Source: a virus. Taken from it: 63,424 bases of DNA. The stretch's first letter is position 1. Every line of letters starts with the position of its first letter. Position numbers and translations under genes: made by a program. The stretch covers positions 1 to 63,424 of IMG/VR virus record IMGVR_UViG_3300013093_000002. The stretch is one strand, 5' to 3'. The notes beneath the pieces are model-generated. The model did no database searches, was not told the DNA's origin, and was given only the letters and a program-made list of their open reading frames with translations. Positions 12,588-12,768 of the stretch are shown piece after piece.

Positions 12588-12655
12588 TATAATATAAACA
12601 TATACACAATAACGTGTATACAAAATAGCAAAATATAAACATATAGGAGAATATT
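12588..12655 (+). promoter_or_regulatory. pqqA promoter with dyad operator and repeated leader
   Basis: TATAAT lies at 12588-12593 without a clear -35 box. At the expected transcription start is a perfect 7-bp dyad TATACAC-N6-GTGTATA (12601-12620). A 14-base direct repeat AATATAAACATATA flanks it (12591-12604 and 12632-12645), and an AGGAGA ribosome site follows (12645-12650). The layout looks like a private, possibly regulated promoter. Confidence 0.65.
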
Positions 12656-12727
12656 ATGTGGACAACCCCATCAGCAACTGAAATGAGATTTGGTTTTGAA
12701 GTAACTATGTACGTAATGAATAAGTAG
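12656..12727 (+). CDS. pqqA: PqqA, peptide precursor of pyrroloquinoline quinone
   Basis: A 23-residue peptide beginning MWTTP and containing FGFEVTMY. It has the length and the E-x3-Y core of PqqA, with Glu15 and Tyr19 at the same positions as in the 23-residue Klebsiella peptide. In the known pathway PqqD binds PqqA, the radical SAM enzyme PqqE cross-links Glu and Tyr, proteolysis frees the pair, and PqqB and PqqC finish PQQ, the cofactor of methanol and other dehydrogenases. No other pqq gene is in this genome, so host enzymes must process it. It has its own promoter and ribosome site and lies between two terminators after the major capsid gene. It was probably acquired from a methylotrophic host; that is inference. 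Confidence 0.9.
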   Translation: [23 protein letters not shown]

Positions 12728-12746
12728 TTAATACGTGCATTTATTA

Positions 12747-12768
12747 GGGGGCCTAGCGCCCCCTTTTT
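12747..12768 (+). terminator. Intrinsic terminator after pqqA
   Basis: Stem GGGGGC/GCCCCC (12747-12752 with 12758-12763), a 5-base loop and TTTTT. With the terminator at 12514-12538 it insulates pqqA as a single-gene transcript. Confidence 0.92.

What the first reader, a model, noticed from the sequence alone, without database searches (positions are those of the whole stretch)
12588..12768. Phage-borne pqqA cassette: a 23-residue PQQ precursor with private promoter and two terminators
The peptide has PqqA length, the FGFEVTMY core and Glu15/Tyr19 in register with known PqqA. It is placed right after the major capsid gene, has its own -10 box, a dyad at the expected +1, a direct repeat and AGGAGA, and lies between strong terminators. 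No pqqB-E is present. I infer that the phage supplies the substrate peptide to raise host PQQ, and thus methanol dehydrogenase activity and energy supply during infection. A gene this short is missed by ordinary gene callers, so similar auxiliary genes may be overlooked in other phages.
Basis: partly seen in the sequence, partly recalled or inferred. Interest (0 to 1): 0.96.

Follow-up and report, generated by a model that had tools for sequence, protein, structure and literature searches.

The report
Phage-carried PQQ precursor gene cassette
This phage carries a 23-residue gene, missed by ordinary gene callers, for the peptide that methanol-eating bacteria use up to make the cofactor PQQ; the same mini-gene, usually with the host's own control site, sits in every methylophage isolate found here and in at least 120 viral contigs, which suggests that these phages routinely prop up the host's methanol oxidation during infection.

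Summary
Confirmed, and broader than reported. ORF 12656-12727 encodes [23 protein letters not shown], a PqqA by curated profiles (Pfam 1.4e-10, TIGR02107 6.9e-10), identical to PqqA of some Methylophilaceae. PqqB, PqqD and PqqE are absent from the window. No viral variant lacking Glu15 or Tyr19 turned up in four scans. The cassette is inserted between capsid and decoration genes (relatives show the empty site) and moves by itself: an unrelated phage shares only 160 bp with the window, promoter plus gene, at 97.5%. The 'private promoter' is of host type: a 16-bp box found de novo upstream of phage pqqA also marks most host pqqA genes and about half of tested pqqB upstreams, but not methanol dehydrogenase genes, at fixed spacing from a -10 without -35. 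Best reading: an auxiliary metabolic gene supplying the one PQQ-pathway component consumed stoichiometrically, under host control. Function is inferred. PqqA in one phage population was reported before (Lake Baikal 2020); breadth, mobility and shared box were not found in the papers searched.

The parts
12656..12727 (+). pqqA, 23-residue PQQ precursor peptide [23 protein letters not shown] plus stop
   Evidence: PF08042 41.3 bits, TIGR02107 38.5 bits; identical peptide in four hits in Methylophilaceae genomes
12552..12567 (+). pqq box TAATGATTTTCTCTAT, shared with host pqqA promoters, centred at about -40 from the predicted +1
   Evidence: EM motif trained on phage pqqA upstreams; best of all sites in the 63 kb window, 18.5 bits. 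The window was in the training set
12588..12593 (+). -10 hexamer TATAAT, 20 bp after the box, no -35
   Evidence: sequence; box to -10 spacing rigid across phages; no sigma-70 pair found there on the + strand
12601..12620 (+). 5' hairpin at the start of the predicted transcript (the dyad)
   Evidence: z -3.6; such hairpins recur at the start of phage and host pqqA leaders
12591..12645 (+). direct repeat AATATAAACATATA (12591-12604 and 12632-12645)
   Evidence: sequence; also present in G147, not in nearest relative L110
12645..12650 (+). Shine-Dalgarno AGGAGA
   Evidence: sequence; similar GGAG-type sites before phage pqqA
12512..12539 (+). intrinsic terminator after the capsid gene
   Evidence: z -4.7
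12746..12772 (+). intrinsic terminator after pqqA with T-run
12571..12730 (+). mobile cassette core: the only nucleotide match to unrelated phage G147/L410 (160 bp, 97.5%)
11587..12498 (+). major capsid gene flanking the insertion
   Evidence: PF10124; relatives HTVC023P, Pag-Yong1, DSL-LC04
12871..13350 (+). probable decoration/cement gene flanking the insertion on the other side
   Evidence: position equals the cement protein of DSL-LC04; no family hit itself

Best explanation
A phage auxiliary metabolic gene in a self-contained, mobile, host-regulated cassette. The phage makes extra PqqA; host PqqD/PqqE and the rest of the pathway turn it into PQQ, which loads methanol dehydrogenase and keeps energy flowing while virions are built. 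Shown: the peptide, its conservation, recurrence in unrelated methylophages, insertion and transfer as a cassette, and the box shared with host pqqA/pqqB. Inferred: expression in infection, processing by host enzymes, the box as an activator site, fitness gain.
For: Profile identity. Hosts: the 120 listed hits of the core peptide in genome contigs carry Methylophilaceae-type PqqA, most records named as that family; 121 of 121 Methylophilaceae genomes have pqqA, 1-12 copies, as published for cultured strains (PMC4109929). Recurrence: nine Methylophilales phage records of several unrelated kinds and >=120 viral stretches, essentially all with a start and a Shine-Dalgarno. Selection: zero viral variants without Glu15 or Tyr19; pN/pS 0.16 over 109 distinct sequences. 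Regulation: box de novo, log-likelihood 468 against ~30 shuffled; phage-trained matrix finds 80 of 121 host upstreams, 1.2 expected; 16 of 30 pqqB upstreams against 2 of 30 methanol dehydrogenase; spacing peaks at 21-22 bp in phages and 44 in hosts. Mobility; empty sites; 69 kinds of upstream gene among 127 loci. One pqqA phage also has a PQQ methanol dehydrogenase and formate dehydrogenase alpha.
Against: No transcript, peptide or PQQ measurement. The host of this window's phage is inferred from pqqA and the box alone; its nearest named capsid relatives are cyanophages and pelagiphages, and 71 of 85 loci of this capsid family in the tree lack pqqA at this site. Hosts already have pqqA, so the gain is not obvious. 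The scans were capped and the pattern fixed several residues, so conservation at those is partly by construction. The box is weak in MEP401/402 and stronger in reverse in Venkman.
Confidence: 0.72

Rival explanations
1. Passenger: a host cassette repeatedly picked up by recombination and tolerated, with no benefit during infection.
For: Hosts carry many dispersed pqqA copies, so capture is easy; the cassette is short and moves freely.
Against: All nine isolate records carry it and the peptide is under purifying selection (pN/pS 0.16) with no Glu/Tyr loss found; box spacing is rigid. Neutral passengers in small genomes should decay.
Confidence: 0.12
2. Regulatory sponge or decoy: the phage copies of the box, or the peptide itself, titrate a host regulator or PqqD/PqqE and so lower PQQ synthesis.
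For: The host box is carried.
Against: A decoy would not need an intact peptide with Glu15 and Tyr19, nor Shine-Dalgarno and terminator; no variants without the substrate residues were found. One pqqA phage carries methanol dehydrogenase itself, so it seems to want more, not less, PQQ enzyme.
Confidence: 0.06
3. PQQ made from phage PqqA serves another use than methanol oxidation, such as antioxidant protection or another quinoprotein.
For: These hosts hold several PQQ-enzyme family members beside the main methanol dehydrogenases.
Against: The host family is methylotrophic (general knowledge) and one pqqA phage carries methanol and formate dehydrogenases together.
Confidence: 0.1

Closest known systems
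PqqA of Methylophilaceae (PF08042, TIGR02107)
   Same: Sequence (identical peptide in some hosts), length, Glu15/Tyr19, upstream box, 5' hairpin and terminator
   Different: On a phage; box mostly two helical turns nearer to the -10 (20-22 against 44 bp)
Lake Baikal VP_266 phage PqqA (PMC7678222)
   Same: PqqA in a putative Methylophilaceae phage, read there as a PQQ-boosting auxiliary gene
   Different: One T4-like population with methanol dehydrogenase; cassette, box, transfer and presence in isolates not described in the passages read
Cyanophage psbA (from memory)
   Different: psbA is a large protein of photosynthesis; here a 23-residue precursor of a cofactor

Membership tests
PqqA (PF08042 / TIGR02107) | Score above the curated cut-off over the full profile | tested here: met
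   41.3 bits vs 21.1, positions 1-19 of 19; 38.5 vs 20, 1-21 of 21
PqqA (PF08042 / TIGR02107) | Glu and Tyr of the E-x-x-x-Y core that become PQQ | tested here: met
   Glu15 and Tyr19 present; no viral variants lacking them found
PqqA (PF08042 / TIGR02107) | Cross-linked by PqqE with PqqD and converted to PQQ | not testable with these tools
   needs biochemistry
Phage auxiliary metabolic gene | Host-derived metabolic gene on a genuine phage genome, outside the core viral genes | tested here: met
   capsid, terminase and DNA polymerase in the window; host homologues; empty site in relatives; sequenced isolates
Phage auxiliary metabolic gene | Changes host metabolism in infection | not testable with these tools
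   no expression or metabolite data
Host pqq regulon (defined here by the box) | Box upstream with fixed spacing to the -10 | tested here: met
   18.5 bits, best in the window; 20 bp from the -10, near the phage mode of 21
Host pqq regulon (defined here by the box) | Bound by a host activator | not testable with these tools
   regulator unknown
Complete PQQ biosynthesis operon | pqqB, pqqD, pqqE linked | tested here: not met
   none in the window; pqqC not searched

The most novel reading that the evidence does not exclude
Methylophages of unrelated lineages share a mobile, roughly 160-bp, host-regulated cassette that encodes nothing but the consumed precursor peptide of a redox cofactor; it is a near-universal hallmark of phages of Methylophilaceae and makes phage infection part of the control of PQQ supply and methanol oxidation in lakes and oceans.
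Probability: 0.55. Interest if true: 0.86.

Novelty: new variant of a known kind. Interest (0 to 1): 0.78.

Why it matters
Methylophilaceae are major methanol oxidisers of fresh and coastal water, and several published phage genomes of this group were described without noticing this gene. If it works as inferred, phages boost a cofactor by supplying only its consumed peptide, under the host's own regulatory site: a compact strategy that annotation pipelines miss, with isolates at hand (P19250A, MEP301, MEP401, Venkman, Melnitz) on which to test it. The shared box also gives a handle, not found in the papers searched, on how these bacteria co-regulate their scattered pqqA copies and pqqBCDE.

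Tried and rejected
Sigma-70 scan found no good promoter on the + strand before pqqA, so a plain sigma-70 'private promoter' was rejected in favour of box plus -10. Rfam: no RNA family in the window; no tRNA. The Acinetobacter 'phage' MD-2021a hits are taken to be bacterial sequence: the one read is a pqqABCDE operon beside ppk. The first impression that 1 of 80 capsid relatives has pqqA was dropped as a rate, because both scans were capped; the tree shows a pqqA clade of ten around the window plus four scattered rows, 5 changes, supports moderate. A literature search for MEP431-433 found nothing, so whether those phages carry pqqA is unknown.

Full report
What was checked. The window's ORF 12656-12727 reads [23 protein letters not shown]. 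Curated models place it in PqqA far above cut-off (Pfam PF08042 1.4e-10; TIGR02107 6.9e-10). The two flanking terminators, the -10, the dyad, the direct repeat and the Shine-Dalgarno are all as described. The window holds no PqqB, PqqD or PqqE match; PqqC was not searched. The surrounding genome is a tailed phage: terminase, SU10-type adaptor, major head protein, family A DNA polymerase.

Where else it occurs. tblastn of the peptide in 50,697 phage records hits twelve. Two are the Acinetobacter MD-2021a records; the one read is a pqqABCDE operon beside ppk, taken to be bacterial. The other ten are nine records of Methylophilales/Methylophilaceae phages (P19250A, Venkman, MEP301, MEP401, MEP402, four Melnitz) and one podovirus from a spring. 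In P19250A, Venkman, MEP301, MEP401 and MEP402 no gene is annotated there; in Melnitz and MW202481 a false ORF on the other strand is. The three isolate papers looked into (PMC9004378, PMC10580990, PMC8024684) do not mention a PQQ gene. I could not list all phages of this host family, so 'all nine' means all that the search returned. Those of the minority type (for example [23 protein letters not shown]) may belong to phages of other PQQ makers; not followed up.

The hosts. A scan of bacterial genomes for the core peptide gave 120 stretches (capped), records named Methylotenera, Methylophilus, Methylopumilus, OM43 or less precisely; the commonest peptide is [23 protein letters not shown], and the window's exact peptide occurs four times. 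All 121 Methylophilaceae genomes searched have pqqA, with 1 to 12 copies. That this family carries several pqqA but one copy of the other pqq genes is published (PMC4109929).

Constraint. Four scans for viral peptides with Glu15 or Tyr19 replaced found none (Phe14 and the remaining frame were held fixed, and not every replacement codon was covered). Over 109 distinct phage sequences pN/pS is 0.16 (host 0.066). The scan pattern fixed Trp2, Pro5, Gly13, Glu15, Val16, Thr17 and Tyr19, so this ratio is biased downwards; but unfixed positions such as Arg11 and Phe12 are nearly invariant too.

The cassette. In relatives of this capsid lineage without pqqA (L266, L264, L328) the capsid gene is followed by one terminator-like stretch and a conserved leader of the next gene; the window and L255 have box, promoter and pqqA, with terminators on both sides, in between. 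Gaps between capsid and decoration gene are 104-154 bp in HTVC023P, Pag-Yong1 and DSL-LC04 against 372 in the window. IMG/VR record G147 (head, tail fibre and connector genes) shares with the window only 160 bp, 12571-12730, at 97.5% identity, whereas the window's nearest capsid relative L110 (97% capsid identity) has a cassette only 72% alike. So the cassette has moved independently of the rest of the genome; direction and vehicle are unknown. Among 127 phage loci the gene upstream belongs to 69 different groups and is on the opposite strand in 52 of 120 cases.

The box. An EM search on non-redundant phage upstreams found TcATGATTTTCctTAt (82 of 105 sequences; log-likelihood 468 against about 30 for shuffled sets); an independent run on host upstreams found ATGA[A/T]3TCATtAG. 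The phage-trained matrix passes its 1% null threshold in 80 of 121 host upstreams (1.2 expected), and the best site in the whole window is 12552-12567 (the window was in the training set). At 15 bits or more, 63 of 127 phage pqqA have it within 140 bp, against 13 other sites in 1,123 kb on both strands. It precedes pqqB in 16 of 30 loci, including some without pqqA next to pqqB (L364, L366, L371) and M. methylotrophus, but only 2 of 30 methanol dehydrogenase genes. Box to -10 spacing peaks at 21-22 bp in phages (41 of 94, with a second group of 12 at 43-44) and at 44 in hosts (29 of 79), while shuffled sequence shows no peak. This is the geometry of activators at about -41 and -64; that it is an activator is inference. 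The transcript would start with a hairpin: leaders fold better than shuffles (mean z -1.2 phage, -1.6 host), with the stem within 6 nt of the predicted start in 61 of 61 phage hairpins (16 of 25 shuffled).

How it most likely works. A phage that shuts off host transcription keeps PqqB-E for a while but runs out of PqqA first. Carrying pqqA alone, under the host's own control, would keep PQQ and methanol dehydrogenase going. One pqqA phage goes further: G132 (72 kb) also has a PQQ-dependent methanol/ethanol-family dehydrogenase (608 bits against a cut-off of 480) and a formate dehydrogenase alpha subunit (885 against 666). Only 1 of 29 records searched has a PQQ enzyme. Expression, processing and benefit remain inferred.

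What is known. The Lake Baikal study reported PqqA in phage population VP_266, with methanol dehydrogenase, and proposed the same use (PMC7678222); a 2026 reservoir study lists viral pqqA, pqqD and pqqE among phosphorus genes (PMC13188868). Searches for further reports found none. New here, as far as those searches show, are the presence in every isolate returned, the mobile cassette and the shared pqq box.

Noticed in passing
window 12792-12870: A conserved leader before the decoration gene (CCGGTTTATTAGACTGTCCCGGCAGACGCATATAAGACTAATAAG...) is kept at about 87-96% in relatives; it may be a late promoter or RNA element (single-sequence fold not significant, z -0.6).
   Followed up: partly
L412 8963-18780 (G132, 72-kb phage record): Besides pqqA this phage has a PQQ methanol-dehydrogenase-family protein, formate dehydrogenase alpha, and curli-type genes (CsgG, CsgF, curlin repeats).
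   Followed up: partly
L012, L022, L027, L033, L034, L037, L073, L088, L092, L125: Phage PqqA of another type (e.g. [48 protein letters not shown]), perhaps in phages of other PQQ producers.
   Followed up: no
window 5262-6278 (+), 48668-49822 (-), 56689-57900 (-), 57936-59009 (-): Two 2OG-Fe(II) oxygenase-domain proteins, and a DUF2201 metallopeptidase/VWA protein next to an AAA ATPase.
   Followed up: no
host locus L349 (M. mobilis 13), motif near 1501-1514: An exact copy of the pqq box lies about 75 bp before a gene that looks like a TonB-dependent receptor, possibly PQQ or metal uptake; may be chance.
   Followed up: no
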